Assembly: GCF_035083965.1 (NCBI RefSeq)
Contig: NC_089739.1
Location: forward strand, 5,400,198-5,464,197
DNA: 64,000 nucleotides
Source of the DNA: Branchiostoma lanceolatum
Taxonomy: Eukaryota; Chordata; Leptocardii; Amphioxiformes; Branchiostomatidae
Direction: 5' to 3'
Notes under the pieces: model-generated
Told to the model about the DNA's origin: nothing
Seen by the model: the letters and a program-made list of their open reading frames with translations, nothing else
The model's database searches: none
Made by a program: the position numbers and the translations under genes
Shown: positions 3,721-57,920 of the stretch, in pieces
Numbering within the stretch: position 1 is the stretch's first letter
How the letters are laid out: each line of letters starts with the position of its first letter

Positions 3721-6695
3721 ATGGCGAGACTGAACAGACCGGCACCGCCTGTGGTGCTTGAGCACAAGGGCATGAGGTTCTTGATAATGGACCGCCCCTC
3801 CAACTCCAACCTCCCCAAGTACATCGAGGTAAGTGGTACCTTCCATACAGTTGTATCACCCAAGGGCAATACCATTGATAGTTGCAGGATAGTAACTAAA
3901 ATTAGGAAAGAGGAATTGAGGGGTCATTCAACTTGTAAAGGCTCGCAAGATAGGAGCATAGAGTTAACGAAAGCATGCAATTGTGGATTTCTCCTTCTAA
4001 GGAAAGTTTAGTGACCAAGTTTGTCTTGAACATTCAAGACAGTTCCATGATTTTGACATTGAGATTTTTAATTTACCATTCAGATTCTTTTAGTCAGTGT
4101 GCTCAACACAAAAATACAGGCTTTTCATGCAACTTCATTTGTGCCATGTTGGAATATATTTTACACCTGTTACACATGCTGTAATGGAACATGGTCGCTA
4201 GGGGATTCAAATTATGATCATTATGTCAACAACAAAAAAAACAACTGAGAGTTTGATCATATGTTTCTGTCATTTTTGTGCAGGAACTGAAGAGTCACAA
4301 TGTGAAGGAGTTGGTGAGAGTATGTGAGCCCACCTACAGCACTGAGCCACTGGAGAAGGAAGGCATTCACGTTTGTGTGAGTACACAAGTCTGTTTTTAC
4401 AGGTTTGCATAGCGAAACCTGTGTAGGATCTATCGGGTTGTGCGGGGGCCGCCATCTTGAATTGTGACGACACAGATCGCCATTTTGTACTTGTGACGTC
4501 AGTATGTCGTCGGCTTGCGCGGGGGCTGCCATTACAGGTTTGGGTAGCAAAACCTTTGTTGGATCCGTTGGCATGTGTGGTGGCGGCCATCTTCATTTTG
4601 TGACGTCACAGGGTAGCCATACCATTTCATTGGGAGGGGTGTTTTTTGAGGTCGCTAGCGTTCTTTCTATTTTTAATAAATCGGCACACAACTATCACGT
4701 ATTCAACTCAAATAAAAAGAAAAATTCAATACCAATTCATATTTATAAAAAAAAACGTAATCGCTACACTAATATAGCAAACCTGAAGTATATGTAGCAC
4801 AAATACTTAACTCTAGTTGAAAAATCTTTTGTCCTGGACATGCATTTTCAATTTTTTTTTGTGACAGATAGCTTTTGATGTCAGGAAGGAGTAGTATAGA
4901 TTTTGGCCCTATAGCAGCTTGCTCTGGAACTGCAGGGATGTTTTTGTTGAAATTTTCCACCAATAAGGAATGGCAGATTTTTTGTTTTTGTAGGACTAAA
5001 ACTGACTTTCAACTGATTATTATCATTTTGCAATATATCTGACTTGGATGGTACTTAATTGACGCTATCGTCACGGTAGACAAATTTCACTGTTAAAGGA
5101 AAATTGACATTTTCACTGAACTTTAACTTCACGTTGGCGGCAAGGATAACAGAACGGATGTGTGAAGGAATCATAGATAATAACAACGGGTATTTTCAAG
5201 GTTATGATAAGTTCACAGTACAGAGGTGACCGTGATAACAGTGAACACAAAGTTACAGTGACAGAAACAACAATGACAGTAATCAGATCTAGTAGAAACT
5301 GCTACCTGAATGTCTACTCCATAAGTCTAAGGGGTGTGTTGTTTTGTAGGATTGGCCTTTTGATGATGGCGCCCCCCCACCTAACAACATCGTGGACGAG
5401 TGGTTCAACCTGCTGAAGACTCGCTTCCGTGAAGACCCGGGGAGCTGTATCGCCATTCACTGTGTGGCTGGACTGGGGAGGTGGGTGGCAGCATGTCCAG
5501 TAGCCGGGCTGTCTCTAGCTTTTGATTGTTTCCGTCCCACTCGTTTGGGAGCCGATGTATTGCTAAATTCGTCATGTCAAGCCTACAAGGATACATTTTC
5601 ATCAATTTCATGTCGAAAAGTTCAGATTTTGGGATGGACAGAATGACAGTTTTTTTTTTCCATCCCAACATGCAAATTTCTGTCCCAGGACGGAGGGACG
5701 GTTCCTGGAGACAGCCCTGTTTTATTGTCACCTCTTGCGATGGCATGATGTCCCTGTGGCTCAACTGGTAGCAGCCTCACAGTTGAGCTCCTAGTTCCAA
5801 TTAGCTGTTAACTGGGAGACCCAGGTTAAAATCCTGCATGGGACAGGACATCTCGGTTGGGGCTGCACCGTCTTTCGGAAGGGACATAAAATGGGGGGGT
5901 CCTGTGTTTGCGGAAGCGCCTTGAGCACCTAAAAGGGGAAGGGCTACCAACCCCTCACTGTAAAAGTATACCCTGCTACAGAAACAGCAAGGAAACTGAC
6001 CTATGTGCCACTAGGCACTGCAAGGTGAACAACAGCAAATTTTATATTGTTTTCTATGAATGTGTATTGATTACTTTATGTACAACCTTGATAATCATGA
6101 TGTTATGTCGATTTTCAGAGCACCTGTTCTGGTTGCTCTGGCCTTGATGGAAAGTGGAATGAAATTTGAGGATGCAGTGCAGTTCATCAGAGAGTGAGTA
6201 GGAGGCGCTTTTTATCCCATCTTTGTATAGTCTAAGTTCACCATGCCTGACATTTTTGTGGTAGTTATTGAGGTCAGGAAGAAACATGGCGCTTTAGGCC
6301 CTCTAGCAGTATTTTCAGGCACTGCAACATTACATGACGACACCCCCTTCCTGAGAGTAGTGTGGTATAGTCTATAGACAGCTGGTCAGACAACTGCCAT
6401 AGAATAGAGATGACATATGAAATAAAAGGAAGGGGAAGATCACTAGCATCTGTACTATTCTAGGGCTAGGGCATTAAGAAATTCAGAAAAGCTAGAGATA
6501 AATATTTCACTGAGGTAAAAGATCTTTGATTTCTTGTTTGTTTTTTTGTTTATCATCCTTCATGTTCTTTCCTGTAGTAAACGTCGTGGAGCCATCAACG
6601 CCAAGCAACTGAACTTCCTGGAAAAATACAGGCCAAAGTCCCGGCTGAAGATCATCACAAGGAATGGGGGGAAAAACAACTGTTGTGTCCAGTAG
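3721..6695 (+). CDS. PTP4A: Protein tyrosine phosphatase type IVA (PRL phosphatase)
   Basis: Five coding exons: 3721-3828, 4284-4376, 5350-5480, 6119-6193 and 6578-6695. All have GT-AG borders and joined phases, giving 174 aa against 173 in human PTP4A1. Visible hallmarks are the WPFDD loop with general acid D72, the CX5R signature HCVAGLGR (nucleophile C105, R111) and a C-terminal CCVQ CAAX box (C171) for prenylation and membrane targeting. The A residue that replaces the usual Ser/Thr after the P-loop Arg is the PRL subfamily signature. PRLs are small membrane-linked dual-specificity phosphatases that bind CNNM magnesium transporters (family knowledge). ATG 3721 is the first in-frame Met and aligns with the family start. 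Introns 2 and 3 hold a tandem repeat and a SINE. The single gene is probably orthologous to the vertebrate PTP4A1-3 group as a whole. Confidence 0.96.
4393..4650. repeat. Two diverged ~130-bp tandem units with CRE and YY1-like motifs
   Basis: PTP4A intron 2 carries two consecutive units. Each begins near TACAGGTTTG with an AAACCT counterpart shortly after, then has a GCCATCTT (YY1-like) word and ends with a perfect palindromic CRE, TGACGTCA, at 4494-4501 and 4601-4608. Both units keep GCGCGGGGGC/TGCGGGGGCC-like strings. This could be an intronic regulatory repeat or simply a dispersed repeat family. Confidence 0.6.
4860..4990 (+). repeat. GGAACTGCAGGG-family repeat fragment
   Basis: A fragment with the conserved words GCAGCTTGCTCTGGAACTGC and AGGGATGTTTTTGTT. 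The same family occurs at 20278-20480, 21900-22060 and 44400-44840, and more distantly at 59690-60290. The class is unknown. Confidence 0.55.
5747..6045 (+). mobile_element. tRNA-derived SINE
   Basis: It lies in PTP4A intron 3. The head reads like a tRNA, with an A-box-like TGGCTCAACTGGTAGC and a B-box-like GGTTAAAATCC, followed by an unrelated body containing GGGCTACCAACCCCTC and ACAGCAAGGAAACTGACC. A second copy of the body lies inverted at 18275-18430 in an AGO intron. The 3' end is placed only approximately. Confidence 0.75.
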
Positions 6696-16936: not shown

Positions 16937-19900
16937 TCATGCGAAGTACATGACGCGGAGGGTGTCGGGGTGGACCTGCACCGCACGTGCCATGTCCATG
17001 TGCGTCCGTTCGCTGCTGTCCCCGGAACGGAATGACCCCTCCCCGCTGTATATAGAAAACAATGAAACAAATCTGTTACGTCAAATCAGAAACATATGTT
17101 GATGAAGGTTACACATTTAGGTAAAAAGATTATACACAAGACCAAAATTTTGCAAGCGACTTATTTTCGAAACAGACGTTTCGGACAGCATCCCTTAGCT
17201 TTTGTCAGTAATTAAATCAGAAACAGCAAGGAGGTAGGGGTAGGTTTATGTCTGGATTAAAATTTATCTGGATTGAAATATGCTAGAGTACCTTTGAACA
17301 CAACTATTTCTTACTTTTTTTCAAATGTAGGTTTTCTTGAAACAAGAAATAGAAGATCTCACACATCCGTGAAATATCTAGAGATTTTGTGAATTTTTTG
17401 GTTTTATGTGAAGTACACATATCTTTGCTAATTCTGTCTAGGCATTTTCCTACCTTCCTGCAAAACTAGTGTTTTCATCCAGCGAATCTCCTGTTAAACC
17501 ATTTTCCAACCAACAGCAACATACTTGCACACACATAAAGACAAACGAACAGACCGAAAGCAATACCTCCTTTTTCACTAAGGTAACAGAGCTTCTTCAA
17601 GGAGGCAGTAATAGGTATGTGTCTTGATTAAAACATGTCTTCATTCAAATACATGTATGCTAGTTCCTTTCAACACAACACTTTCTTACTAAATCTTAGT
17701 TAAAAACTGAACAAGAAATCGAACAGTATTGCACAAACCTGTCGTGATCTTTCTCCACGAGATGGTAGCGTGCGCGGAAGGCGACCAGATGTGCGTAGTA
17801 CGCGGGGGCGGGGATGGAGACACTGCGCGTGCAGCGGACGTAGGTGTGACACAGCTGGTAGGTCAGCATCTGGAGGTCGTCCGCCATGAAGTTGTTGTCA
17901 TCCCACAGAACGTGATAGTGAGAGGGACGACTGGTACCCTGGGGGTGTCGGGGGAGAAGATCATGTAAATGAACCTCTGACCTCTCAAGTAAAGCAGAAC
18001 GGATAACAACTTCGATTTGTTTTCTAATATGTTTTCATGTAAAATATGTTTTTGGTTGTGTATACTTTCGGTTACTTGTGTTACTTATGTCTCAACACTC
18101 CTCTGTTACTTATGTTACAGTTTTGTCATAAGTTCATTTTCTTTGTTATACTGATGACTTGACTGTTTTGTAGTCTGGTGGACCCCATTGAAAATCAATT
18201 TGTTAAAATTGAATGGGCTACCCATGGCAGCTGTCTGAAAATTCAATAAAAAAAAGAACCTGCTTTGTTATTCACCTTGTAGTGCCTAGGGGCACATAGG
18301 TCAGCAATTTTCCTTGCTGTTTCAGTATCAGGATATATTTCTACCGGGAGGGGTTGCTAGTACTTCTCCTTTAACGTTATCAAGGCACCTCCTCGAACAC
18401 GAAACCCCCATTTTACATGAATTTTTGCATAATTTTCAATAGACCCGGCGTGTAATCATACCTGGATACCGGCGTGGCTGCATAAGTAGAAGTCAAACTC
18501 CGTGGGATGGGTGATACCAACGTCAACCGTAGTGCCCGCTGGGATGTTACCGCTCTTCCCAATCTGTTGCAAATACACGTCATGTTAGTACACTCTGCTT
18601 ACTGTATCATAAATTCAGTTACTTTTACAGTGGTTTTATTTTGCTGGGAAAATCTTCAAAAAGAGTTTTTTGCAGTGGTTGAAACGATTCGATATTTGTG
18701 ATGTCATGAATCTGCAGTAGAGAAGTCACTTCGACAGTAAAACCACTGCAAAAGTTCAAGAATTTACAGTATATAAACCACTATAATATCTCTATCTGTT
18801 TCTATTTGCCAGAATCACAATGCCTTTTCAAGCAGCTAGTAGTGCAATGCAGCTTTGGCAAAACTCAGGTTTCTAGCCAAGCCCACTCCTACTCTTCTTG
18901 ATAAGTGTGCTGGGTTCTTTTAAGTGCACAGGTTTGATACCTGAAGTTCATGCCTAAAGCTCCCTCATACACCGGACTGCAGACTTTACGTCACTATCCA
19001 AAATGACATTGGTTTCTGACTCCCCCCCCTGACCCAGACAGGAAGTGACCCCTGACCCAGACGGGAAGTGACCCCTGACCTGTTCCTTCCTGTCTGAGCA
19101 GAAAAGTCGGGTGTGGTGGCGCTTCTGCACCACGATGAAGGTCACGCCTGGCTCGTACCCGACCTCTAGCTTCACGCAGGCCTCTCGGATCGCCCGCAGC
19201 TCGTGCCACAACACCTGGGAGAAATACACAGGTCGCCATTAAAATTCAGGCTTATTACAAGTTGTCATTCAATGTAATAATAATGATTAGCCCCACTCGC
19301 GGGGCAGTAGCAGCTGGTTATATTACGCCGAACGACCTGTCGGGTACCATGATGGGTATGACCCTATGAACTTTGACCCTGTGAACTCTGACCCTACCTG
19401 TTGAAACTGCCCCTCGCTGACCCCATCTCGGTACATGATGATCCTGGTAGGCTTGAAGCGTGTCGACTTGTAGAACTGGATCAGAAGCTCCCGGACCATG
19501 GACGCGAGGTCCGCTATGATCTCCTGACGGTGGGTCTGCACACGTACGGTCGCCGCGTAGCGACTAGGGTGGGCATCCATGCTACCCACAACCTATCGAA
19601 GAAAGGTTTGGCGCGTCAGTACGCTGCTCTGTTCAACAAATGGCATAACAAACGAGAGAGGCTGTCTTGAAACATGCAAGATTTTGGTGTTCTCAAACTT
19701 TTGAATAAGGTTGAAATTAACTGTTGTCACATTCTGTATACGTAATCAAAATCATGGGAATTTTTAACACATTCTCAAACATATTTTTTTGTCTTCTGTA
19801 ATGTTATAGTTGCATATTTTGTTATCGTGATCACATTTTTAATCAATGTATGTACCTCAATCAAATACACAATTATTAAAGTAAAACATAATCAAAATTC

Positions 19901-22900
19901 ATCTTTTTCTACAAGAACTACCAGCCTCTCTCTTAATTACAATCAATATGATACATATTATACATACATGTCTACATATACTAGTCACAAACTAACAAGC
20001 AAAACTCCTTTAATTAATCAGACGATGGCCATTCGGGTAGTACAGGTCAAAATGGCGGCAGCCTGCAAAGAAAAGCGGTTCTGTCAAAATGCTTCCATGA
20101 AGGGAGCCAGGGGACGAAATGAGACCACACATGCAGAAGGGAAGAGAAGAGACACAGAAAGAACGACAAAAGGCAAGCATTGTGTGTATTTTGGAATAGG
20201 CAGTGAGACTACATAACAAGGCAGTATAAGTACATGTATGGGGTAGAGATTTTAGATAAACTGCCGTTTTTGTATCTTTTGATCTGAAGATGGTACGGTC
20301 ACCAAATTGTTGTCGACGTCGTTGATACTGCTCTTGTAAGCAGGAAACAGTGACATAAGTTTGAGCCCCCTAGTGGAACTGCAGGGGTGTTTTTGTCAAA
20401 ATGTTTGATAACTCAAGAAGTGGTTGACAGATCATGATGATTTTTTGGTATGTAGGTACATTGCAGCTTTAGCGATAATTGACATAATTAAGACAATTGA
20501 TTAACAAGAGAAACTTTATCAATCATACATACATGTAACAAGGGCATTGAGGTTATATGCAACATGATCTTAGACGAGAGAAATCGGTTGGGCAAAAGTT
20601 TCAAAGAAGTTCTTTTCTTGAGAGTAAATTGCATCTTTCTGAGATAGCTTCAGAAAAGATTGTCAACTTTCTGTTACCTGTGTGTCAAATTGTTTCCGCT
20701 ACATGTTCAATGCGTACTTCGTAATCTAGCGAAAAAGATCTGGAATTGGCTGGAATTAATTGTGAAGCAGTTGCAGTGATTCGTAGAATGGTCTTGATTT
20801 GTAGAACGACAAAGTGTTTGAGCAGTGGATATCAACCGTGACGTTGTCCCCTCAACAATTTGGGGCAAACTTTTGAAAACTGAGGAGCTACCCTTGATTT
20901 TGTTACAAAACCCTGTACGGGTTTACGGTAAAATGTGTTTTTCTATGACGAACAAACATGTACGTGGAAAGTGTTTTTCACAATATATGCAAAGATCAAG
21001 AGAAAACGAAAAAACACAACTTCTACAGGGAGGGATGATACAACAAAGGCAAAAGAAACGGACACAAGCAAAAGGAAGGAGGACAGATCCTACGGACATG
21101 CTACCAACCACAGCAAGGAAACGGGGTTAGCCTAGCTAACAGAGAGGCCCCACATACAGCTGCGATGGACGGCTTTCTCCCGTCTCCCGCTGGCGGGTGC
21201 GTCACGTCCGCTCCAATGAAAATGACGGGCTCCAGGAATACGCGCGGGCTGTAAGAGACGGAACAAGTTTCAAAGACAATGAGAGCTGGCTGACTCTCCT
21301 ACGAGAGGGAAGCCTTGGTGACGGGCGAGACCATTACGCTGCCTGATGGGGGTCCAACTTTTCAACACATCTTTTTTTGGCAACACCTCAGAGGCGAGAC
21401 TAATAAGATTTTTTTGGCGATGCCTTAGGGGCGAGCCTGATAAGATTTTTTGGCGCCACATTAGGGGCGAGCCTTATAAGTTTTTTTTGGTGATGCCTCA
21501 AGGGCGAGCCTGATGGGAAAGTATTGTTATAATTTCAGTTTCTAAATTTTTTTTGAAGTGATCAAGGTTGTGTCAGGACAGAAGAATTGCCACAAACTTG
21601 TCTGATGATAGAGGAAAGTTTCCTTGGAACCCCCTTCAGGAGAATGTAATGGTCTGCTCTGAGCCGGACGTACCGCAGCGATGGAAGGCTTCTTTTCATC
21701 GCCTACTGGGGGGTGCGTGACGTCGGCGCCCAGGAAGATGACTGGCTCTCGGAACACTCCAGGACTGAGTGTGAAGAAAGCACAGGCTCCAATGTAGCCC
21801 TACCGCCCAGCATGCCTAACCTGCCTTATAGTACATGTTGTCTCTAAAATGCTCAAAATCATCAAAGTTCACTTGTTTAATTTATCTTTTAAGACTGTTC
21901 TCGACCAAATTGTTGTGGTAGATAGCTCTTGCAAACGGGAAAAAGTGACAAAGGTTTACGCTCCATACCAGCTTTTTCTGGAACTGCAGGGGCATTTTTG
22001 CCAAAATGTTTGGTCAAACTGAGTGTGAAGAAAGCATGGGCTCTAATGTAGCCACCAGTGTATAGCAGTTTCTAATGTGCACAAAATGGCAAAAATTCAC
22101 TTGTTTTTCTGGTTTTTTTAGAGTGTTATTTATTTCTGTTTTCTATTTCTGAGCATTAAAGAATCACATTTAAATCTATGCATTTTTTTCTTGTGTGTAT
22201 TGCATATCTACATAACAACATGTTGTTTGGATATGAAAGAATAGGTATGGATTGATGATAATTATACGTTATTAAACAAGATAATATTTCAACAATATTT
22301 TACCAGTCATATAGCTTGTCATCTTCCTTATCAATTGGAAAAACTTAATTTTGATAAGCAACAATTCATCAACAACAAAATTCTGAAATTGTATGTACTT
22401 CAAGCCCAAATCATTTAAACCAAACCAAATTGTGAATAATCTTGAGGAACAAACAAAACAAACCTATTGCACCGGCAATAAGACAGTCTACTCATTATTA
22501 AATCCATGGCAACTATGTCAGAAATCAAGCATCTTTTTTACTGCACAAATGTTGATCTATGAACTTTAAGTTGTAGGTCAGACAGCATCTTTTTACATCA
22601 AATGTTGATCTGTGAACCTTGACCAGTAGGTCAGACAGCAAACATATTTTTTATTTGAAATGTTGATCCATGAACCTGGATCTGTAGGTCAGACAGCATT
22701 AGCATTACTTTACATGCTGCCCTGTGAACTTTAACCTATGAAAATTGACCTGTAGTTTGACTCACCGTATGTGCGGGACCAGGATGTTGTTGACCCCGCC
22801 CAGTTTGACGTTGATCTTCAGGCACAGGTTGGACAGCGTTTGCGGCGACGTCTTGATCACGTTCTTCACCTGTACGCACTGCGTGGCCACGCCCAACATG

Positions 22901-25900
22901 GTGTCTCCCACACGCTTCACCTCCGCTACAGAAAGTGGTCCAACACGACACGAGTTAGTCCTTTATCCATTGTGTCATACTAAAGACTTTTAAAAAAAAT
23001 GGTACTGAATATCAATTTACTTTCGAGATAGCTTTATTTTGCAGTAGGATGGAAAAGGAGGTGTTGGGGTGTTTAAAGTTTGCAGCTGAAACAATGTGGT
23101 ATACAGTAGCAGGGCTTGAAATTCATTTTTTGGAACAGGTGCACTTAACCCCAAAATTCAGGTGAACAGAAAGAATTTTGGGTGCACAACAACGTACATG
23201 AAATAAAGTAGAATGTCAGCAAAACATATTTACAAACCCTACTGCCCCTAAGAAATTAAATGTGAATTTCTATAGCTAACTTCAAAATCTAAACAAATAG
23301 TACATCAAAAAGTAAAACGAAGATTACATTGCTTTTTCTGATACTTAAATTTCAAGAATATTCTGTTCACTAGTGTACAATAGCCTACAAAAATATCTAG
23401 GTGCACTGGTGCATCCACAGGCAAAATTAGGTGCACAGCTCCAATTTTGAGTGCACAAAAGTGCACATGCACCCTGTATTTCAAGCCCTGCCACCTAAGG
23501 GAAAGCTCCTTACCATAGACGGGTGTCTTGCCAGGCAGGACCACTAAGATGAGCTGCAGCCCCTGGAAGGTGTTCTTGAGATACTGGAACATCTTTTCCA
23601 CCTGGTCGGCGCCCGTGGCGTACTTACAGAAGCACGGCTGGCCCACGATCGGCATGCCCGCGTCGTTGGAGATCCTCTGGAGCTGTTGGGTGAAGTTTCT
23701 AGAAAACAAAAGATATTTGAGGTTAGAAATACTACAGATACCTTGAATACATTGTTACCAATCAAAGTTGGTTAGTGTTATCACACTGCAACAAAACACC
23801 ACAGGGGAGCATTGCGAGGAATGGCGTGGAGGGGGGTTCCTCCCTGCAACAGTCATGAGTTTTGCTAAAACTTTTAGAGAACTTTAAGTTAAAATGGCCT
23901 GGTAGCACCCCTGGTCAATCAGAATTTTATGTGAGAGGATCTGCTCCCCAGGGCATGGGGGCGCAGCGCCTCTGTAACCCTGTTTAGGTAAAGCCTTGCT
24001 TTTGTATACAAGTATGACTTTCTATGTTGTACAATTAAACCTGTAGTGGCGACCACCCCTGTATAAGGTACATGACCTCAGACTGAGGATGAAGCATGAT
24101 GCTTTGCTAGCTAGTAGTGCAATGCAGCTTCACTCTACAGCTCACTTATCTAGCTAAGCACACCCCTACTTTTCTTGGTCAGTGTGTTGGGTTCTTTTAC
24201 ATGCAGAGGTTTTATGCTTGAGGCTTATGCCTGACAAATTATACAAATTCCACAAACATTGGCACAATAAACATATCATACATCACTCATTCGTAAATGC
24301 CTGAAATGGGTTAAAAATGAAGTCAAACAACTTGTAAAGTTACAGAAAGACAACAACTTAAGAAATACAGCTTAGAATTAGTGACGTTAAGATGAAAGAA
24401 ATGTAACAAATGTAAATTCCCTTACAACATGTCCGTGCTAGGGCTGACCTAGAATCAAACTCCAGTCTTTATTTAATATCTCATTGACCGAAGCATTACA
24501 AGAACCTATCTGTGGAGACCACCTGTCCACTGTGACCACTTTAAATCACTGGTGTGGGAAATGGAAAAGACACGCAGACAAACAACAAAAACGAAACACA
24601 CATATCGAACACAATGAAAACACGGAGACGGCCGCTCCCTTACCTGAGAGCCTGCTCGCAACATTGCCTCTGCAGTGCGAAGCAGGCCATGGCCCAGACG
24701 CCAATACAAAAACAAAATAAAACAAACACACATCGAAAACAATACCTTCGTACATGGTGGTAAAGACAAAGATACGAGCGCCCCCTACCTGAGAGCCTGC
24801 TCGCTACATTGCCTCTGCAGTGCGAAGCAGGCCATGGCCCAGACGCGGATCTCTATGCCCGTGTGGAACTGCTTTCCTCTCATGTCCCACACACCTTGGT
24901 TTGGCACCACGGTGGCACGTGTCTGTCAAACAAACAAACAAACAAACAAACATTCAGCCTTTCGTCCAGATTTCTTACATAATAAGACGTTTATAAGCAA
25001 ATGTTCTGAATTACTTAATATGCGGTATCTTAAGCAACAACAATTGTCTTGAAAGTAAATGATGAAAGCTTTGATAGTCACCGGCATTATCAAAGCAACC
25101 AAATGTATACCAAGCAGTAGCATGCTGACTTTTGAAATAATACCTGAAGCCAGTGACATGTACACAACTGATGATATCTCTTGGTTTGGAGATACAATGT
25201 AGTACTGTGCAGCAGTGTACTGAAAGTTTCTTTCTTTTATACAAAAAAATGCTGTTTTTATTTGGCAACAAATTTGAGCAGTTTCAATACAAAAATCCTT
25301 CCATGAAAATTTTGACACTTTGATAAATACAATATGGTACATGTATATGGAATGTGGGAATTCGACAGCTTTTTTAGTCATTTTTTTTACCCTGTCAATT
25401 CAATTTCAAACCAGCTAGTTTGGGAAAATTTGTTATGCAAAATGAAACCTGTTCTTGCTTGCTACTCCCTAACTGCCGAAATCTACCCCCATCAAATCTG
25501 AAACAATTCCAAATGTTATTTTAGTACGATTCAACAAAAAGCAAATACATTGTACAGGGGCCAAATTTGTGGCTTTCACTATATTCCAATTTTTTATGTT
25601 CCTGTAATTTTCAAAAAGACTGCTATTCATAAAATGAAAATACATTTCTACAATACAGAACATAATTATTAGTTACAAATAGTTTTTCCTCTAATTTCTA
25701 GTTTATTAGTAAGACAGAAAATAACATTTGAGAATCACAGCTTTCTAACTTTCTTCAGAACTATCACACCAAACTTTGTCTTTAAGTAAGTTAAAACTGA
25801 TGAAGGAGACTGGCACCCGACATAAGTCAAGTAAGTAAGTCAAGTTAAAACTCTCAAACCAAACTAATTCACACATTATCTTAACCTTCGGCGAGATCAA

Positions 25901-28900
25901 TTCAACTGGCGGTATAACAGACACAACTCAGGTGGTTTGGGACAACCCGGAAAAACAATCTGATCACAGAAAAGTGACCAAACGTCGAAAGGACACTAAG
26001 CTACTACAGTACACACAAAAATATCTTATTTACCATCTCAATAGTAAAGCGGGTATCTCACCTGACTGTCAAATTGCACTTGTCGTACAAATCGGTGCAA
26101 TTCAAAAATAATTTTCAATTTGGAAAATTGAAGTAAAACAGAGAACATCCTTTTATCACTGCAAGTTTCAATTCAGTGGCAACAAGTTACGATTTCCAAC
26201 AAAGTTAGCTTGTATCGAAACTGAGAATGCGACATTTCGGGAGCAGCCATTTTGTTTGGCTGATCTGGGTTTCATACTCAAATGCGTTGCACGCCAGTGC
26301 TACAGTAAAAGAAAATCGGCACAAATTCACAAAGTTGGCACAATTTCCTCTCGCGATTTGGCACACTCTAGTGAAATACCCGCTTGATATTAGTGTATAG
26401 AAAGATGGTAGGTTGTCTGTTTAAGTACTAACTACATGTATAGGATCCCAACCCCCTCCCCATTCTAAGAATGATTCAGAAAAAGCTGATACTTTGTAGT
26501 ATAGCATTTGGAATTCTTGTCTTAAGAAATGCAGGCATCAAATAATTTAGGCCATGCAAAGCTGTGACTTTTAATTTTTATTCAGCAAAAAAAAGAAAAA
26601 GCGAGTCCACTTTGCCTTGTAGAGTCTGTTATACACCCAGCTGAACGGATCTGGCCTAAATATGCTTTACATTGTTTACCCGTCCTCCATACTGAAGCAT
26701 GGGAGGGTCGAGCACGCGCCCCTCGACTTCCGCCATGTCGTTAGAGATGCTGATTCCGAAGTCTCGGACGTAGGGGTCCGCGTTGAAGTTGGCGCGCTGC
26801 ATCTGTAACATTATGGACAAATTAAGAGATTAATAATAACAAAAATATCAAATTAAACTGCATTCATCTTTCTTGTTGTTTTCCACATTTGTAACCTGGT
26901 TACTACTTAGTGGTAGCGTGCGTAGTCCAGTGGTTAGCGATCTTGCCTCTGGAACTAGAAGCCCTGGGAATTTCCCTGGTACAATGAACCTGTAAATACT
27001 GTATATAGCGTCTGTCATCTCCGGCATGACCAGTGGATGATTAGCTCATCTGTTCATTGAGTTCATTTGAGGTAAACTGGTTCGAAATCACTTTCCTTTC
27101 CTTTCCTTTTGGTAAAATTTGAGCATGTTGAATCTTCCGACTTTCAATCTCGGCAAATTGTAAATTTTGAAATGTTTTCAGTGATTTTAGTTTAGCAGTT
27201 TTCAGTGACCTCTTCACGAACAAACTGATGACATCACAAATTATCGTTTGCCAAGTATTATTCCTGTACTACAGAATTGATCCACCTATGTAATTTAAAA
27301 CCGCCTAAAACTGTAGCGAAAGAAATAGAAAAAAGAGGTCGATAAAAGAAAGATCAGAACTTTATTCATCTTTCTCGAGGTTATCATGTCTACGATTAAT
27401 CTTGAAATATTTGTGGCAGTTTAAGATTCGTGGTTTACGGGGTGACCTTCGAAATGCGAATTTATGACACTGCAAATATCTGTTTTAACTGTACTATAGA
27501 ATGTGTTTTAATTGCAAACTTGAAACACAGTGCAAAACCTAATTTTGGAAATAAAGCCAAGGCAACAATAAATGAATTTAAACTGCATTTATCTTTCTTG
27601 TTGTTTCCAACATTTTGTAACTTGGTAAAATTTGGGCATGTTAAATATTCAGTCTCTGTAATCTCCGAATGTTGTCAATTTTGAAATGTTTTGAAAAGTG
27701 ATTTTATTTTAGCAGTTTTCAGTGACCTCTTCACCACAAATTGGTAACATCACAAAATAGAACATACTTTACATAGAACATAGAATATGAAAAGTGGGAT
27801 GTTATCCAAACGTACCAGTCTGATAATCTCTCGTTCCCTGTCTGGAGCTGACCTGGCAGTGGCCTGGGTAAACAAACAAACACAACATGAACAACACTGT
27901 TCTTAGTTACCATGGCTACAGCCTGGCCAATCATGGGCCTGCCCAGATCATGTGACTAATGCATGGACGAGCTTATTGCAAGAAGTAAGTTTGCAGAACA
28001 ATAGCTTTTTTAAATTTTTTTGTGCAAAAGCAGAAAAACATTACATTATCATAACTATAACTAAGCCTCAAAGCTTACAACAATTAATTTGCATTTGATT
28101 CTTAATAAAATGCTATGCTCTTGCCCAATCATATATAATGAGTATGTTATTAATGCGCACTAAGCATAAGCTTGCAGGGAACACCATGCGACACACATAC
28201 CACAACGACATGCTTTGCACTGATCTAGCAGTACCCAAGTAAGTTGGTTCTACACCAGGCATCACCGAGTAGCTCTTTCAGACTCAGAAATACTACAACA
28301 TTTGGCTCGCCCCGGAGGCTTCGCCAAAAAAGTCACTACAGGTAGTCGATGTTGCTTCCAATATTTTCATACATTGAAGAATTGGAGAATGGATAAGTTC
28401 AATGCTAGAAATTTTTTCCAAATTTACTCGTAAATTAAGTAGAAATTTTGTACAAATGGTGAACTCAATGTTTCCCTTACACTGCCTAAACTTTCTTTTG
28501 AAAAAAAGTCAAATCAACCTGTGTATCAATTTTTGTTTGGGCATTTCATTTCTTCCCCAAATGTAACATATTCGAGAGAGACAATGTTTTCTAATGCAGC
28601 TTCTACGAACAAGAATATTTTCTCACTTTTGTTGTGAAATTCAATTATCCATGCGAACAAGTATGTGACAATGTTACAATTTATCGATGCAGCTTTGTAA
28701 AACCAGACTTTCCTTATATCTTACACATTAGCCAAGCACAAAAACAAAAGCCCAGAAAAACGAAAGAAGATTTTTGCGGAGAGAGTGTTTGTGTGCGACA
28801 CATGTACAGTCCAGGCCTTGCAGTGATGGCTCGGGTAGAGGACAACTTATTTGAGAAACCTTGATCATGGTGGAGGTCTGCATGTCGGTCAGTTTCTTGA

Positions 28901-31900
28901 TGCAGCGCTGGCCAGCGACGATGTTGCACACCTGGAAGGGGAGGAGAGCAGGCTGTTAGCTAGCAAGGCGTCTGGACACTAAGAAAACAAAGACATTAGA
29001 CATCCTCCTTTTACAGGGGACACCCAGCAAACGTGTACATGCGTTCCCTGCACAAACACACTGCCAGTTATTTTTTCCTCATACCATACACAGGGACATG
29101 ATGTAAATCAATTGATAAAAAAATTGCAAAGCTACCAGGTAATTGTTCATCCATAGAGCCCATCGGGGTTAGGACTGGTCACCCCTCCCCCGATTTTTGG
29201 ATGCCCTGTCTATAAATCCTAGCTATCCTGACCTACAACATAAATATTTATAATTCATGCAGATATTTCTGACGCCTACCTGAACCTAACATGCACTAGG
29301 CCATGTAAATGTGCATCTTTATCATTGTTAAAAAAAAGCTTTAAAAATAGTTGCACTTTACCTCGAGTGGCAGGTAGGTGTGTTTTTGTTCTTGTCCCAC
29401 CTGAAGGCACGGCAGGTGAGGAAATCTGGGAGAGAAAAAAACATCAGCATCTTTTAGCACACGTTGGGTACAGCACTGAAATATATAGTTAAAAACCTCT
29501 GCAGTATTTTATCTTAGCTGCAGTTTTCAAAAAGATCACCAGGGAGTGCTGCAGCACTGTATGCAAATTTTAAAAGATAGTGAATACAAGGGGAAAACTC
29601 ACTCCAGCCTCCTCTTGTGCCTCTCCAAGAAGTATTTTGCAACAGTACACTCCACAGTCCTCCCATCCTCCAACTGTAGAGGGAACCTAACACAACAGAC
29701 AACACATACTGTAAATCTTGAAATGTTCACTGTGGTTTTATTCTCACATTTTTTTGCCGTGACCTTTCCACTGAACTTTTCTGAACTATAGAATTATTTC
29801 AACTTATAACACAGCAAAATCTCAACTTCTCTTTTACTGTGGAACAAAGTCCCCGTAGATATAAAGGAATTTACAGTAAGCTTTCAACTTTGCAAAAAAC
29901 TTTAAATCCAACAGTATTTGCTCAGTAAGATATTTGTTCAATTGATGAGGTTCACTGTAGAGTGACAGGAAGTAAAGGCCAAAGTTGTAAATGCACATTA
30001 CGGTATAGAAGGGTTAAACGGCCATTATAGAAGAGTCGGACGTACGTTTGTGTCTGCGCGGGTCTGCGGGTCACGTTACATACGCGGTACTTCCGCTTCA
30101 TCTGTCCGCAGTGGGTGATCTCCACTTTCAGCCCTGAAGTACATACAACATAAGGATCATGTACATTTTGTACATGTACACACTTATTTTCCATATGCTA
30201 GTCACGTTCAGTCACAGGAATTGAACAATGGACACATGTAATGATGATAAAAATTATTCAAAAAATATTCAAAAGACAAACAAACAAATATAACACAACA
30301 CTGGTTGTCTTACATATGAAAACATTGCCTTTTATCATTGTACCTGTTCGTGACTTGAACACAATAAAAAATTGGTTGCTGACTATGTTAGACAGTTCAT
30401 TGCTTCATAAAGGGTTGTAAGTACATGGAATAGGATCAAACTATTTAATCTTACATCTAAATATGGCAGTTGCCACAAGTAAGTTATCAGAAAAAGATGT
30501 TTAAACAGGTGGATTTGACTGTAGATGAAAAACATCAAATAGAAAGGTGTTTAAACCATTATTCCATATACAGAATGACCTGTGAGACCTTTGATCTCCT
30601 TGGTGAACTTGACCCTTTGCGAGTCGGTGAGGGGTCGCCGTTGGTCGTGGATGTCTCTCACATCCAGCACCTCGCACATGAACTCTATCACTGGCTGGGC
30701 CTTGTAGAACGCAGTGGCAGAAACTGTAACAAAGAAACAACAAGATGTTACCTCCGTGAAATGGGAGGTATCGTTTTCGGTTGTCTGTCTGTCTGTGTTA
30801 TGTATTTTCCATATGCTAGTTACGTTCATGCCAAACCCACAGGAAGTAAAGGTTAGAGTTGCAAGAGTGACAGGAAGTGGAAGACAGAGTTGCCAGAAAT
30901 AGTGATTTAGCAACCTTGTGGTGACAACTGAGATTCCTGGTCATGGGGTCAATGAAAGAGCCTATTAGTTCACAGGGGGATATTGGTTTGTCTGTTTGCT
31001 TGTTTTTTTGTGTTTTTGCAGTTGTATATTTTCCATATGCTTGTCATGTTCACCATAGAGTGACAGGAGGTGAACAAAAGAGACATGTAAAATTACCCAA
31101 AACCTGATTTACATAATAAATGAGCTATAATCAGACGACAAACGATAAACTATAAACATTTCACATATTCAGGTATACAATTTTTGGAAAAGATACAGCA
31201 GGAAAACAATATGTATTTTCTAGCAAATGTCAGTTACTCTTACAAACATAATAGCTTATTTTGCAAGTTTTTACCTGAGGGCTAATTGCAACATGGAACA
31301 ATGCATAGAAAAAGTCTACAGACAGTGCAAGGTAACAATGGTGACAAGTGGAACAAGTGACAATTCTAATTTCAAGACCTGATCACATTATATCACTTTA
31401 ACACAGAGAAACAAGGACTGTAGATTACCGTCAATGTTGAGCATCATTTTCCACTGGGAGGGTCTGACGCTCTGGTGGAAGCCGAACCACACCTCTCGCC
31501 CCCCGCCCAGGGGGTGGCTGTAGCCCTCGGGGGACGAGAAGAAGGATCTTCCCACGGGAGTATACCTGGAGAAACATGGAGAAACTCTGGTCACTTTTCG
31601 GTAAGACCTCAGGGGCCGAACATTTTGTATCTTTATGCATTCAAATCAACATGGCATGAAAAGGTATACATGACGGTAATACGTCAAAGCTGTGGGCCCT
31701 GGCAATACATATAGAATGGACAGGGGAATTAAACTTTGACATTACACACAATGCAGCAGACTACACATTTCAGTTCGGGAATTCAATTTCATGGTAGGGA
31801 GAATAGAGAGTGCTCATGGTGGTTTCAAGTTTACGGATGAAACAAAGGGGTAGGCGGGCAGAAGACAGACGAATCCTTTTCACTGTGGTTTTAAATTTGT

Positions 31901-34900
31901 GGTGAACAGGTCACTGTGAAAACCGCAAACATAAAACCACAGCGAACATTTCTGCATTTACCGCTATGAGTATGATGTCCTATTCTTACTTCATGGATCG
32001 GAAATGTCTCTTTTCGCTGTGGATTAAAATTTGCGATGAACAGGTCTGTGACAAAACTGCAAACACAAAACCACCAAAAAACTTTCTGCATAAACAGTAA
32101 GACCACTATGATGTCATTTTCTTACGTCATGGATGGGAGGTGTCTCATAACCACGTCCAGCGCCTGGATGGCTTCGAACGGGACGGTGGCGAGGCGCCCT
32201 TCCAGCGCCTGCTCCAGCGCGTACAGGCTGACCTTCCCAACCCACTTCATCGACACCTTGAAGTGGCGGTCCTTCCCTCCGTCCCCAGGTAACGTCACGT
32301 CAAGCTCCACCTATAAACATGATCAAACATTTTTTATCATCGTATAAAAACTAGTTATGTAATTCATACATAGAACAGGCTACTTTTATACTTTCAATAA
32401 CAGACTAATCCTGACTGTCTGTCCATCATGATGAATCGTTCAACCAATGATAGGAAGGCACTTAGCAGTTCAACCAATGACAGCATGATAGTTAGGGGTT
32501 CAACCAATGATAGCTTGGCAATAAGCAGTTCAACCAATGACAGCATGGCAATAAGTAGTTGAACCAATGATAGTATGGCAATAAGCAGTCTAACCAATGA
32601 AAGCATGGCAATAAGCAGTTCAACCAATGATTGCATGGCAATAAGCAGTTCAATCAATGATAGCATGGCAATAAGCAGTTGAACCAATGATACGCCAAAA
32701 AGCAATTACTCAAACAACTAACACTGTTCACTTCACATCCGGAAAGCCAGTTTCCGGATTCGAAGGCGTCCATCTTGGAAATCCAATTTTCCAACTTTTT
32801 TTCTACTGAACATACAGATTAGTTTTACATGTCATTTGAAAGAGCATGATTTCCCTTGCGTTATGGTACCTCTAATTTGGTCATAAGATGTAAAGCTATG
32901 AAGATATTCCTTTTTAAAGTTGCCCAACCCATACCTACATTGATTAGGCCTGGCGACTGTACTATTGCCCAGACTTTGCTAAACTGGGGCCACAGGGGGC
33001 TAAGAGTGGGCTATCCCAATGAAAATGGGTGATAATTAGTCCTTCCACACTGTTGAAAACACTCGCATAATGAGTTATCACACCTAGCTAGTCAGTGTAA
33101 TTAGCACTTATTTGACAATTTTCTCCTGAGGTGAACAATCTGATTTGAACAAGAAGCTCTATCAAGCCTCCTTGATTTGATTTTGCCAGATCACAGTGCT
33201 TCATTATTTCAAACTAATAAGCTATGTTGTCAATTAGCTTGACTTTGTGACATAGGACATCTGCAAAGATGAAAAAAGTATAATGGACCTTGGTTGTATT
33301 CATATAAGCTGTGATAAATATGTAAAGATGTAACAGTGTAAATCAATTTTGACCTTTTTTAAAGAGACTGGTGGAAGAAACCTTGAAGAAACAAATCAAA
33401 TTCAACTGTAACAATTCCAATTGTCTTCCCTTGGCCCTCGCCAAAAAAAAAATGTTAAGAAATCATTGGGAATTTTCATAATTTGTATTTGGGAGATTAA
33501 AGAAGCCTCAATGCAAGGAGGTTACAGGCCTTAATATATTAAACCTCCTTTCTCTGAATGTTTAAGATATGCTTCGAGTCCTGAGTTGTGAATTTGTATG
33601 TTTGTTAGCAAGGCCTTAGACCATGTTTAACTTGATTGGTGTTTTAATTCTCTTATCGATCAAAAGCCTTGCTTGGCCCATGAATATAACATCTTTATTT
33701 GACCAAGGATATATAAAACCTCCTTGGTTTTCCCAAGGAGGTTTAATCTTGGTTTTCCTTAAAGGCATCCAGAGCATTTTATGTGGCTTGAAAATTGGAA
33801 ATATTCTAGTTGCTGTAATCTTTATGAAATTGTCATTTAATGCCACTGTTTACCACATTTGCGTGATGATTACATGTCACAAGCGCTCAAAAGCCACGCG
33901 AAAATAAGCTACACAATGATCCCTTTAGTTTCACGCGCCTAGTGTAATTAGATTGAAACAGAACTCAAAACGGTTTTTTCGTCGGTAATGGACCGTTCCC
34001 GTCGAACACCATATAGAACCCCCTGTTCTATTTGGAACACCTCCGTCAAAAACAGCGCTAGTGGGACAGAAATGACAAGCAGAAATGACAATGCATATCT
34101 GGGACAGATATCTCACTGCATTGGCTACATCAAGGAGGTTAACCTCCTTGGCTACATGAATACCCAAGAAAAAAGCGAAATGAAAAAGAAAATATCTCGG
34201 GCACTCAAGGGGACGGAGCTTACGTAACACATTGCCAACTAGTACCAAGTCCGTCTCTCATGTACTTGTGCGTTATTCCTGTGTTCGACTGGAACGGTCA
34301 GTTCTCTGCAAGTTCCGGCGACGGGACGTCACGTTCCAAGAAGTCGGAAAATTTGAGAACAAAAACGGCGGCGCTGACAGCGCTTGGATTTTTTTTTGAG
34401 TGCTCAACACACAGCGACATCGCATCTTTGCTCCTTGAATATCGATATGTAATGGTATAGTGTTATTGAAACTTACTATGTGTAGAAATGGCTAAAAACT
34501 GGAGTTTTTAATTTGAGTTTGAAGCCACATAAAGTGCTCTGGGTGCCTTTAATGGCAGATTTGTCCACTTATCAAAACATTTTGTAACATTATGTAACAA
34601 AGCTTCAGGTAGACAATTTGCATAATACTTACTGATCACCCATACAAAAAGAGCGGATAATGATACCTACCAATCGACATGGTTAAGACAGAGCTTGAAT
34701 GACAATGGTCCATTATTTACACAAGTTTGTTTTGTTGTTGTTGCTTGCTGGCAATGTGACAAGCGGCCATCTTTGCACAAAAAGATTTACAAAAACCAAG
34801 GACACGATAAAATGTCCTTGCAAAAACTTGGCCATGCGGCCTAATAGTTTAATATTTAACAAAGACTTTTTGTTGCGGGACAAATTGAGCAGGCGAGATG

Positions 34901-37900
34901 AAAATGATACTTGAGGTAGTCTGCAAGGATTCAGAATAGAATGGTTTTGCAGAATTGTAATCATGAATCCACGTTTTATCAACATAATACTCTTTTTGTG
35001 TAAATACCACTAAAATACAAACATCATGGCGTATGGTAAGAAAGATGGCGGCAGCCGGCCACGCGCCGCGATCGCGAGGCATTTTCTGTCTTTTTCTTGT
35101 CACCAGGACCATGATACATTATTTCATGCCGGAATATAGCAACCTGTGACGTTAACTCATCAAATCATACTGTATTTCGGTAGATTTCAGCCATCTTCAT
35201 GTGTACTTCGTGTATTTCGGACGTGTATTTCGTGTATTTCCCGCATTTCGGTAAATACACGGACCGCCGGGGGGACTATACTAGTTTGAGGACAGTGTAA
35301 ATAAAGAGACCTCATTAATTAAATTCTGAAACTATTCAATGATCAAAGCGTTACATTTTTGAATGTATATAAAACGGGCAAATAGAGTAAGTAGGTGAGA
35401 TAACCATAACATATTAGCACCTGGTGATAGATAATGTGGGCAAGACTGCAGTAGCACTTTAATAAAATTTGGGCGTGGGTCAGTTGTTTCCGAGTGTATG
35501 ATGCCAAAACAAACTGACACTACCAAACTAGCCACTACCTTTTCACCCCATGAGCAGAAGTGAATGTGAGTATATAGTGGGAAATGTGGGTGAATTTGGG
35601 TGAAGAGCCGTAAACTAGATTCGTATTGTTCCCATGTCAATATGGAGGGGTGAATGTAAAACTTGCGTCTTCGTGACAAATGAGTAAAATGGGGTGAATT
35701 TGAGTAAACCAAATTGCACTTTACAAATACAAAGGCGAATCCTTGCAACTACGTCATTATGTGCATTGTTTCAAGGGCTGAACGAATGGATCGATATTGA
35801 CACTATCAAGAATTATATTATATATATAGACAATATGAATAGTAGATTGGTCGGGAGTGGTGGCTTTTATACTCTTCTAAGTTTGACCCCGTTCACACTC
35901 ATTTTTTTCAATCGCGATTGAAGTATAATTGCGATTGTTCGATCCGATCGCGATTGAACGTAAAGAAACTTTTGCGTTCACACTGCTTTTCGCTAAGTGG
36001 ATTAAAGTACGCCGTGATCCGATCGCGATTGAAGCACGATTGAAGCATGCTATCGGCGATCATCTGGTAAATGTTGTTGTTGTCCTTGTTGCCCTTGTTT
36101 TGTGTCTATTTTTCCGCTAGACATTGTCACTTGGTGCGGTAAATGTCCGGATCCCTCTTTCGGTGACATTTCCCCAGTTTGGCCTGCACCTCCTCTCTCC
36201 TCCAGATTGCGATGAGGACCCTGGTCTCCTCATCGCGCCATCTGCCACCAGCTGAAGTTGCTGACGGAGTTTTATTGATTTTCTTCTTGGGCATTGTTGA
36301 CGATGAAAAGTTGTTGTTGTTGTAAAAGAGCGATCTGACGTGCGGATTGGGTTTGTTTTCCCGCGCGATGCGAACTATGACCCCAAGTACCCGCATGTAT
36401 GACCTCCCACCCCCGGAACCAGCCGAAATCTCCGCCGATCGCGATGGAATGAATCGTAGTTGTGTTCACACTCAAAATTTGATAGGATTGGATTGGATCC
36501 GATCGCGATTAATCCAATCAAACTACCTCCGGAGGTAGTTACAATCCAATCGCGATTGGATCGTTGTGGATCGTTCCAATCGCGATTGGGAGCGTTCACA
36601 CTGAAAAAATCAATCGCGATCGGATCGATTCAATCGCGATTATACTTCAATCGCGATTGAAAAAAATGAGTGTGAACGGGGTCTTTATCAGTGTTTATTA
36701 TCTTTTAAACGAGCCGTTTATCGCCAGTGTCTGTAAATTTAAGTACCATATTTTTTTTCAATGAACAGCGCACACCCTGTACCCGTATTGTAGCTTAAGT
36801 TACTCCTAAACCTTTTAGCGAAGTTGTTTTAGAAATCGTCAATACGCATTGGGAATCCCCACCACAAACATCCACCAATCTTTGAGAAACCATAATGTAT
36901 TCACATTGTTATGCAGCCCAGACTTCCACCGCTATTGTTCCTGTATGCAAATGAACATCACTATCACAACATCATGAGTGGCTCAGTAACGCTCCATTCA
37001 AACAAGGACAATATTATATAATGTCCTTGATTCAAACAACACCTTAGGTTAAAGAATTCGATTTTAAAAGATTCCAAAGTAGAGAGAAGTCAACAGTGGA
37101 AGATTTACAAAGTTATAAAAAATTAAACACCTCTGTAATTGAACGGGTATTTTCTTATTTCTTGATATCAGAGTCTCCTGCTTTTTAAAAATTCTTAGTT
37201 TTGCCAAGGAGGTTGGTTTTGCCAATTTCAATAAGGCACATCACTCTCACTTGTGGAAAATATATTGGGTGTATGTCGTGCCAGGAAATGTTAAAAAATG
37301 CATTTAAACTTATAATAAACTAAAAGCAGAGTAACAATTAAATGAACTAAACACAATAATATCGAGAAGAGTAGGGTCGCGGTGTGCTTCGGACCAAAAA
37401 TCAGAAGCGGTAGCTTTTCACGCCGCATACTCAACCTACAGCCTCCCTGACTAATTAGTCGCCAGACTTGCCACTCTCATGATCAACATCCCCTGTTCTG
37501 TGATTTTAGCAGGACTTGAAATTCAGTACTGTACTTTTCCTGTCATACTTCAAAGTAAATAAATCTATCCCGTGTTACTATAATGTAAGTAACATAAAAC
37601 TACCTGCACCCTGCTAATTTTAACTGCACCATCTATTCATTTTCCTGTTCTGTTCATCAAATGTAATAATTTTAAAGTGATATAATTCAAACCTTTTTAA
37701 ATCCTGAAATCTGTTCTAAGGGCAGTAAGGCAGTACAAAGTGAACATATTGTTTTATAAAGAAAATGGCCACTACCTGAATTGGATCACAGACCTACTTT
37801 GAATCATACTTGCTAATTAGACTGTATTTCACACCAACTGGCAAAGTGTGAGTTCAGTTCTGGAGAGCCAGGCATTGGCAATAGAGAGCCTGGCCATTCC

Positions 37901-44399: not shown

Positions 44400-44840
44400 C
44401 AAATCATAAATACCTTCGCCAGAAGGTTATATTTTCAGTAGCGTTCGTGTGTCTGTCTGTCTTTCTGTGTGTGTGTGAACACAATAACCCGTGAATGCCT
44501 GAATGGACTGTCTTGATGTTTGGTATGTGGGTAGGTCTTGATGAGACCTCAAAATGATTAGATTTTTAGCCCCCTTGAGGCTAATTGTTCATAATGGTTT
44601 AATACGGTACAGCGGAACTTCCAGCTTTTGCATAATTTGATCTGAAGATGGTACGGTCACCAAAAGGTATATTTAGTCTCACTCGCTCTTGTGCATGAAA
44701 ATATGATATAGGTTTGAGCCCCCTAGCTGCTTGTTCTTACTCCTGGAACTGCAGGGGCGTTTTTGTTCAAACATGCTTTAAAAGAAGATAACTCAAGAAG
44801 GGGTTGACAGATCATGATTTTTTGTACATAGGAAGCTTTA
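44400..44840 (+). repeat. Long copy of the GATCTGAAGATGGTACGGTC repeat family
   Basis: It includes ATACCTTCGCCAGAAGGTTA, a TGTCTGTCTTTCTGTGTG stretch, GATCTGAAGATGGTACGGTC, TTTGAGCCCCCTAG, GGAACTGCAGGGGCGTTTTT and GGTTGACAGATCATGATT. It is followed by a (TGTG)n run to about 44900. This is the longest member in the window and the best consensus source. Confidence 0.65.

Positions 44841-51162: not shown

Positions 51163-57920
<6,758 letters not shown>

What the first reader, a model, noticed from the sequence alone, without database searches (positions are those of the whole stretch)
21158..21764. Duplicated, apparently mutually exclusive slicer exon in Argonaute
Two 91-nt exons (21674-21764 and 21158-21248) have the same phase, good acceptors and donors, and 24 of 30 identical residues. 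Both keep the GADVTHPP block with the first catalytic Asp. Either alone keeps the frame; both together (182 nt) break it. The six substitutions flank the active-site strand, so two AGO isoforms with slightly different catalytic centres may be made from one gene. I know of no described mutually exclusive exon at this position in animal AGO genes, though I cannot search.
Basis: partly seen in the sequence, partly recalled or inferred. Interest (0 to 1): 0.88.

Follow-up and report, generated by a model that had tools for sequence, protein, structure and literature searches.

The report
Argonaute gene with alternative slicer exon
This animal Argonaute gene carries two old, protein-constrained versions of the exon that holds the first catalytic residue and an RNA-gate loop, so one gene can probably make two slightly different RNA-silencing proteins by choosing one exon or the other; no RNA data were available to prove the choice.

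Summary
The minus strand carries an AGO-clade Argonaute gene, 20 coding exons per isoform modelled from 40203 to 16937. Two 91-nt exons (16a, 21764-21674; 16b, 21248-21158) encode the same 30-residue stretch with the catalytic Asp, share phases and 24/30 residues, and have GT-AG sites. Either alone keeps the frame; both or neither stops early, 621 or 553 nt before the last junction. Of 25 codon-base differences 19 are at third positions; dN is about 0.10, dS saturated; 0 of 200,000 neutral simulations had so few residue changes. The pair is old and both copies were kept as protein.

The interpretation shifts. The catalytic Asp is identical in both. Three of six differences lie in the loop matching human AGO2 602-608, the PIWI side of the 'central gate': 16b is human-like (PAGDGRK versus PAGDGKK), 16a is PVGDEKK. 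Published swaps of this loop change seed strength and product release, so altered targeting is likelier than altered catalysis.

Mutual exclusivity is inferred from frame, not shown. The RNA-stem mechanism failed its control. No relatives, RNA-seq or species identity could be obtained.

The parts
16937..40203 (-). AGO-clade Argonaute gene, 20 coding exons per isoform modelled (first coding exon with the ATG not located)
   Evidence: Exon chain with GT-AG introns and no internal stop; Pfam ArgoN, ArgoL1, PAZ, ArgoL2, ArgoMid, Piwi in order for the 16b isoform
22766..22925 (-). Exon upstream of the pair; ends in phase 2 (CG|gtgagt)
21674..21764 (-). Exon 16a, 91 nt: [30 protein letters not shown]; variant central-gate loop PVGDEKK
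21249..21673 (-). Intron between the two copies, 425 nt, with a 37-nt tandem repeat array at 21372-21511
21158..21248 (-). Exon 16b, 91 nt: [30 protein letters not shown]; human-like central-gate loop PAGDGRK
21090..21215 (-). Candidate hairpin of exon 16b with the sequence after its own donor; predicted only
   Evidence: fold z -2.56, 4 of 200 shuffles as good; most extreme of 20 exons in the same local test, z -3.9, next -2.32
19398..19592 (-). Exon downstream of the pair, starts in phase 0 (VVGSMDAHP...)
28860..28931 (-). Exon encoding the other side of the gate, IKKLTD (human 353-358)

Best explanation
An old tandem duplication of one exon gave this Argonaute gene two alternative versions of the segment matching human AGO2 584-613. 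Each transcript uses one. Using both or neither shifts the frame and makes a stop in the PIWI domain, far upstream of later junctions, so such RNAs should be destroyed or useless (inferred from frame and the established nonsense-mediated decay rule). Both proteins keep the first catalytic Asp and should slice. They differ mainly at the mouth of the RNA channel: 16b carries the human-like loop; 16a has Val for Ala603 and Glu for Gly606. The facing gate loop keeps Lys354 and Lys355, so Glu606 could bridge to it and hold the gate more closed. By analogy with the published plant-loop swap this would weaken seed-only binding and speed product release. Shown: anatomy, frame logic, constraint on both copies. 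Inferred: alternate use of both exons (about 0.8), decay of wrong products, and gate tuning (about 0.35).
For: Equal lengths, phases and GT-AG sites. Single-exon isoforms are open to the natural stop; double and null products stop 621 and 553 nt before the last junction. Third positions carry 19 of 25 differences in the 90 codon bases; 13 of 24 same-residue codons differ; 11 of 15 fourfold sites differ; dN about 0.10, dS saturated (ML 4.8; NG86 undefined; two other estimators failed); 0 of 100,000 neutral runs from each copy. Third-position G+C is coding-like in both, 67% and 70%, gene 76%. Three of six differences lie at 603, 606 and 607, in the loop 602-608 named as central gate (PMC11893014, passages) and shown by swaps to tune seed binding and turnover (PMC10240194, abstract and passages). 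IKKLTD is conserved on the facing loop.
Against: No transcript evidence for either exon. Each copy has one weak splice site on the gene's own scale. No structural mechanism for exclusivity was found: the best inter-exon stem (z -4.75) is beaten by the best stems of four other introns of the 19 examined. The intron between the copies is 425 nt and the AG-free zones are 20 and 35 nt, no sign of a close-packing block. The gate effect rests on analogy with a whole-loop swap from a plant protein, not on these substitutions. [quoted passage not shown]
Confidence: 0.77

Rival explanations
1. Both exons are spliced alternately, but the proteins are functionally equal; the pair is kept for expression control or by drift under purifying selection.
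For: Within the exon the residues named for the active site and the target-base-9 pocket in the passages seen (D597, T599, P601, P609) are shared (PMC8616905; D597 as catalytic is recalled); human 603-606 is disordered (PMC10240194, passage); L/I and K/R are conservative.
Against: Two non-conservative changes (A603V, G606E) fall in a loop with measured effects on targeting (PMC10240194).
Confidence: 0.35
2. One copy is a relic that was used for a long time but is now silent.
For: No expression data; each copy has one weak splice site; the 16a acceptor lies in a 36-nt sequence repeated 254 nt upstream, so its surroundings were rearranged.
Against: No stop, frameshift or lost GT/AG in either copy, and saturated synonymous divergence with only six residue changes.
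Confidence: 0.1
3. The pair is an off-switch: double inclusion or double skipping is the regulated event and lowers AGO level through decay.
For: Both aberrant products have stops 621 and 553 nt before the last junction.
Against: A poison exon needs no conserved protein sequence; both copies are constrained as protein.
Confidence: 0.08
4. Assembly artefact: two alleles or a paralogue placed in tandem.
For: Only the window was available; no read data.
Against: 65 of 91 bases identical, that is 29% different, far above allelic differences as I know them (recalled); the flanks differ, and the gene's protein finds no other doubled coding part except one recent partial exon copy.
Confidence: 0.03

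Closest known systems
Tandem-duplicated, mutually exclusive exons (OGDH 4a/4b, U2AF1 3/Ab, SNAP-25 exon 5)
   Same: Two homologous exons in tandem that swap one protein segment; OGDH 4a/4b swaps calcium sensitivity (PMC7969005, passages; U2AF1 PMC5224494 and SNAP-25 PMC2581893 from the search listing only)
   Different: Different gene; usage here is unproven, and no distant branch point or competing structure was found
Shrimp (Marsupenaeus japonicus) Ago1A/B/C isoforms
   Same: Alternative products of one AGO gene that differ in the PIWI domain (PMC3510085, passages)
   Different: There it is presence or absence of an 81-nt, 27-residue insertion (place within PIWI not given in the passages seen); here two homologous versions of the same exon
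Central-gate PIWI loop, human AGO2 602-608 / Arabidopsis AGO10 713-720
   Same: The same loop position is what differs between the two exons (PMC10240194, abstract and passages)
   Different: There the difference is between kingdoms and was swapped artificially; here it would be switched inside one gene
Vertebrate AGO1-4
   Same: Closest solved relatives of this region; AGO1-3 chains match over the same length, the AGO4 chain over ten residues more; several near-identical AGOs in one animal
   Different: Diversity there comes from gene copies (recalled), here from an exon copy

Membership tests
AGO-clade Argonaute | ArgoN, L1, PAZ, L2, MID, PIWI domains in order | tested here: met
   Six Pfam families in order, 16b isoform tested
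AGO-clade Argonaute | First catalytic Asp retained in both exon versions | tested here: met
   D at human position 597 in both; its catalytic role is recalled
AGO-clade Argonaute | Slicing activity | not testable with these tools
   needs biochemistry
Mutually exclusive tandem-duplicated exons | Homologous adjacent exons with same phases and GT-AG sites | tested here: met
Mutually exclusive tandem-duplicated exons | Only single inclusion preserves the frame | tested here: met
Mutually exclusive tandem-duplicated exons | Both copies under protein-level constraint | tested here: met
Mutually exclusive tandem-duplicated exons | Transcripts with either but not both exons | not testable with these tools
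   no RNA data held
Mutually exclusive tandem-duplicated exons | Conserved in related species | tested here: inconclusive
   No genome held, protein database off, no relative in viral contigs
Exclusivity by intronic RNA pairing | Pairing beyond that of other introns | tested here: not met
   Inter-exon stem z -4.75 is exceeded by four other introns of the 19 examined (-5.88 to -6.88), and one more is at -4.70; one species only
Exclusivity by steric block or distant branch point | Very short intervening intron or long AG-free zone before the second exon | tested here: not met
   425-nt intron, AG-free zones of 20 and 35 nt; note that the OGDH intron is over 500 nt in early chordates (PMC7969005, passage), so length alone does not exclude exclusivity

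The most novel reading that the evidence does not exclude
One animal Argonaute gene switches, by exon choice, between an ordinary seed-driven silencing protein (16b) and one whose central gate is held more closed by Glu606 facing Lys354/Lys355 (16a), giving a more complementarity-dependent, faster-turnover enzyme. Splicing would then change the targeting rules of the small RNAs in a cell.
Probability: 0.15. Interest if true: 0.88.

Novelty: new variant of a known kind. Interest (0 to 1): 0.62.

Why it matters
Argonaute diversity in animals is usually explained by gene duplication (recalled). A swap of the segment that holds the first catalytic residue and the central-gate loop, inside one gene, would be a second route, and would give a natural pair of near-identical proteins with which to test how that loop sets targeting. 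The prediction is directly checkable in RNA-seq.

Tried and rejected
Protein relatives: the large protein database was switched off and the query was not sent. No whole genome is held for this window. A viral-contig scan matched 9 stretches, none a relative. I did not run the bacterial and archaeal genome collection.

RNA structure: a first scan of 11,781 segment pairs in the introns around the exons gave best energies (-51.2) below the best of three half-scans of shuffled sequence (-36.0, -42.7 and -37.7). A strong predicted stem joins the 16a donor side (21657-21625) to the inter-exon intron (21356-21325), z -4.68 against local shuffles, 0 of 1000 as good (the whole stretch folds with z -3.26). 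I took it as a candidate mechanism, but the best stems of four other introns of the gene are stronger, up to z -6.88, so it is dropped. Pairing of the region upstream of 16a with the 16b acceptor (228 of 1000 shuffles as good) or with the 16b donor side (104 of 1000) is not above shuffles; exon 16a with a stretch of intron 15 gives z -2.5 (18 of 1000), unremarkable for one of many pairs looked at. The 16b donor hairpin stands out among 20 exons but was picked after seeing it, and there is no second species; kept as a note only.

Third exon copy: none found; the gene's own protein finds only two extra matches in the window at E up to 0.1, exon 16b and the partial exon copy near 24.7 kb. Rfam: nothing at gathering threshold.

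Literature: seven searches for duplicated or mutually exclusive exons or isoforms of Argonaute and one for Branchiostoma Ago2 splicing showed no such exon in the titles and starts of abstracts listed; for only 20 of 125 papers and for only 25 of 36 were listed. PMC9741552, on human tandem duplicated exons, has no occurrence of AGO1, AGO2, AGO3 or argonaute in its main text.

Splice-site scores come from 18 donors and 19 acceptors of one gene and rank, rather than prove, strength.

Full report
What is there. The reported exons are real. Reading the minus strand, an exon ending at 22766 in phase 2 (CG|gtgagt) is followed by 16a (21764-21674, acceptor cactcag, donor gtacgt), 16b (21248-21158, acceptor cttacag, donor gtatgt) and a phase-0 exon starting at 19592. 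Pfam finds the six Argonaute domains in order (16b isoform). In solved structures the best matches of the region are argonaute-3, -2, -1 and -4 chains (human by recall; the listing names no species), argonaute-3 on top for both versions. Of 23 such full-length chains, 22 score 1.6 to 2.3 bits higher with 16b; one argonaute-2 chain (8d6j) scores 264 with 16a against 259 with 16b. Among distant relatives the order varies: argonaute 10 (7sva), 5the and KpAGO score 1.0 to 1.9 bits higher with 16a, QDE-2 1.7 higher with 16b. These small differences say only that neither copy is an outlier.

The two copies. They share 65 of 91 bases and 24 of 30 residues. In the 90 codon bases there are 25 differences: 2 at first, 4 at second and 19 at third positions. 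Of 24 same-residue codons 11 are identical; 11 of 15 fourfold sites differ. dN is 0.10-0.11; dS is saturated (ML estimate 4.8, NG86 undefined, two other estimators failed). Simulating 25 neutral differences from either copy gave a mean of 15 residue changes, a minimum of 7 or 8, and 0 of 100,000 runs per copy with six or fewer. So the duplication is old and both copies have been kept as protein; a copy long out of use would not look like this, though recent silencing of one cannot be excluded. Synonymous saturation prevents dating. For contrast, a recent partial copy of another exon in the same gene (24637-24701, 65 nt, 97% identical; no acceptor seen by eye) has nearly unchanged DNA.

Frame. 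With either exon the model transcript is 2577 nt and ends at the natural stop. With both, the stop lies 621 nt before the last junction; with neither, 553 nt. Full-length protein therefore needs exactly one copy. That is the only evidence here for exclusivity; no RNA was seen.

Splice sites. Against the gene's own other sites, 16a ranks 10 of 20 for donor and 17 of 21 for acceptor; 16b ranks 18 of 20 for donor and 8 of 21 for acceptor. Each copy thus has one middling and one weak site, which would suit regulated choice but proves nothing. The last 35 nt before and the first base of 16a are repeated at 22018-22053, 33 of 36 alike, so its acceptor lies in rearranged sequence.

How exclusivity might be enforced. 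The intron between the copies is 425 nt with AG-free zones of 20 and 35 nt before the two acceptors: no sign of close packing or of the distant branch points reported for OGDH (PMC7969005, abstract and passages). A strong predicted stem inside that intron is not exceptional: of 19 introns examined (one, of 6783 nt, was left out as too long), four others have z of -5.88 to -6.88 and one -4.70, against -4.75 here. The sequence around the 16b donor folds better than 196 of 200 shuffles and is the most extreme of 20 exons in a local test, but it was singled out after the fact. I therefore rest on frame plus decay, with an unknown regulator.

What differs in the protein. Aligned without gaps to human AGO2, the differences (16a/16b, human) are 585 G/R (P), 588 R/L (Q), 594 L/I (L), 603 V/A (A), 606 E/G (G), 607 K/R (K). 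Against human, 16a alone differs at 603 and 606, 16b alone at 594 and 607, and both differ at 585 and 588. D597, T599, P601 and P609 are shared. Residues 602-608 are the PIWI side of the central gate (PMC11893014, passage). In one complex this loop contacts target RNA, and P601, R814 and the backbone of T599 and P609 form a pocket for target base 9 (PMC8616905, passages). Swapping the loop between Arabidopsis AGO10 and human AGO2 changed seed affinity, and the plant loop in the human protein sped product release about fourfold (3.9 +/- 1.8); its ordered form lies within bonding distance of the K355 main chain and perhaps the K354 side chain (PMC10240194, abstract and passages). The window's protein keeps IKKLTD at 353-358 (the printed alignment is to argonaute-1, the argonaute-2 rows have the same range). 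Exon 16a adds an acid and removes a glycine on the loop opposite those lysines. A bridge that favours a closed gate is my inference. A Nematostella study notes that predicted models show this loop even where the human crystal does not (PMC11811051, passage), so I did not lean on modelling.

Known or new. Tandem exon swaps are a known kind (listing; PMC9013439, passages). For Argonaute the nearest printed case found is the shrimp Ago1 27-residue PIWI insertion (PMC3510085, passages), which is not an exon swap. The searches named under Tried and rejected showed no swap of this exon. Genome annotation may already list two isoforms; I could not look.

Limits. If it is right, Branchiostoma lanceolatum small-RNA libraries were reported to hold miRNA and piRNA candidates but no siRNA class (PMC6396948, abstract and passages), so any isoform difference would, by inference, act mainly on miRNA targeting. 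No second genome, no transcripts, no measured activity.

Noticed in passing
24637-24701: Recent partial tandem copy (65 nt, 97%) of the 3' end of the exon at 24789-24922, with a donor but no acceptor seen by eye; reading on from the true exon past its donor meets a stop.
   Followed up: partly
22018-22053 and 21764-21799: The acceptor sequence of exon 16a is repeated 254 nt upstream (33 of 36 alike), giving a possible decoy 3' splice site.
   Followed up: partly
21372-21511: 37-nt tandem repeat array (3.8 copies) inside the intron between the two exon copies.
   Followed up: no
20259-20445, 21904-22012, 4856-4946, 44616-44823: Interspersed repeat family, mostly 71-73% alike between copies, two of them in the introns around the exon pair; looks like an old mobile element.
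   Followed up: no
21090-21215: Predicted hairpin of exon 16b with sequence after its donor, the strongest such local pairing among 20 exons of the gene.
   Followed up: partly
56044-56364: Plus-strand open frame with part of a CNOT11 domain (Pfam PF10155); CNOT11 is a CCR4-NOT subunit, a complex that by recall acts in the same silencing pathway.
   Followed up: no
5350-5646: Open frame with an HCVAGLGR stretch that by recall resembles a PRL-type phosphatase; Pfam gave no match to the frame as cut.
   Followed up: no
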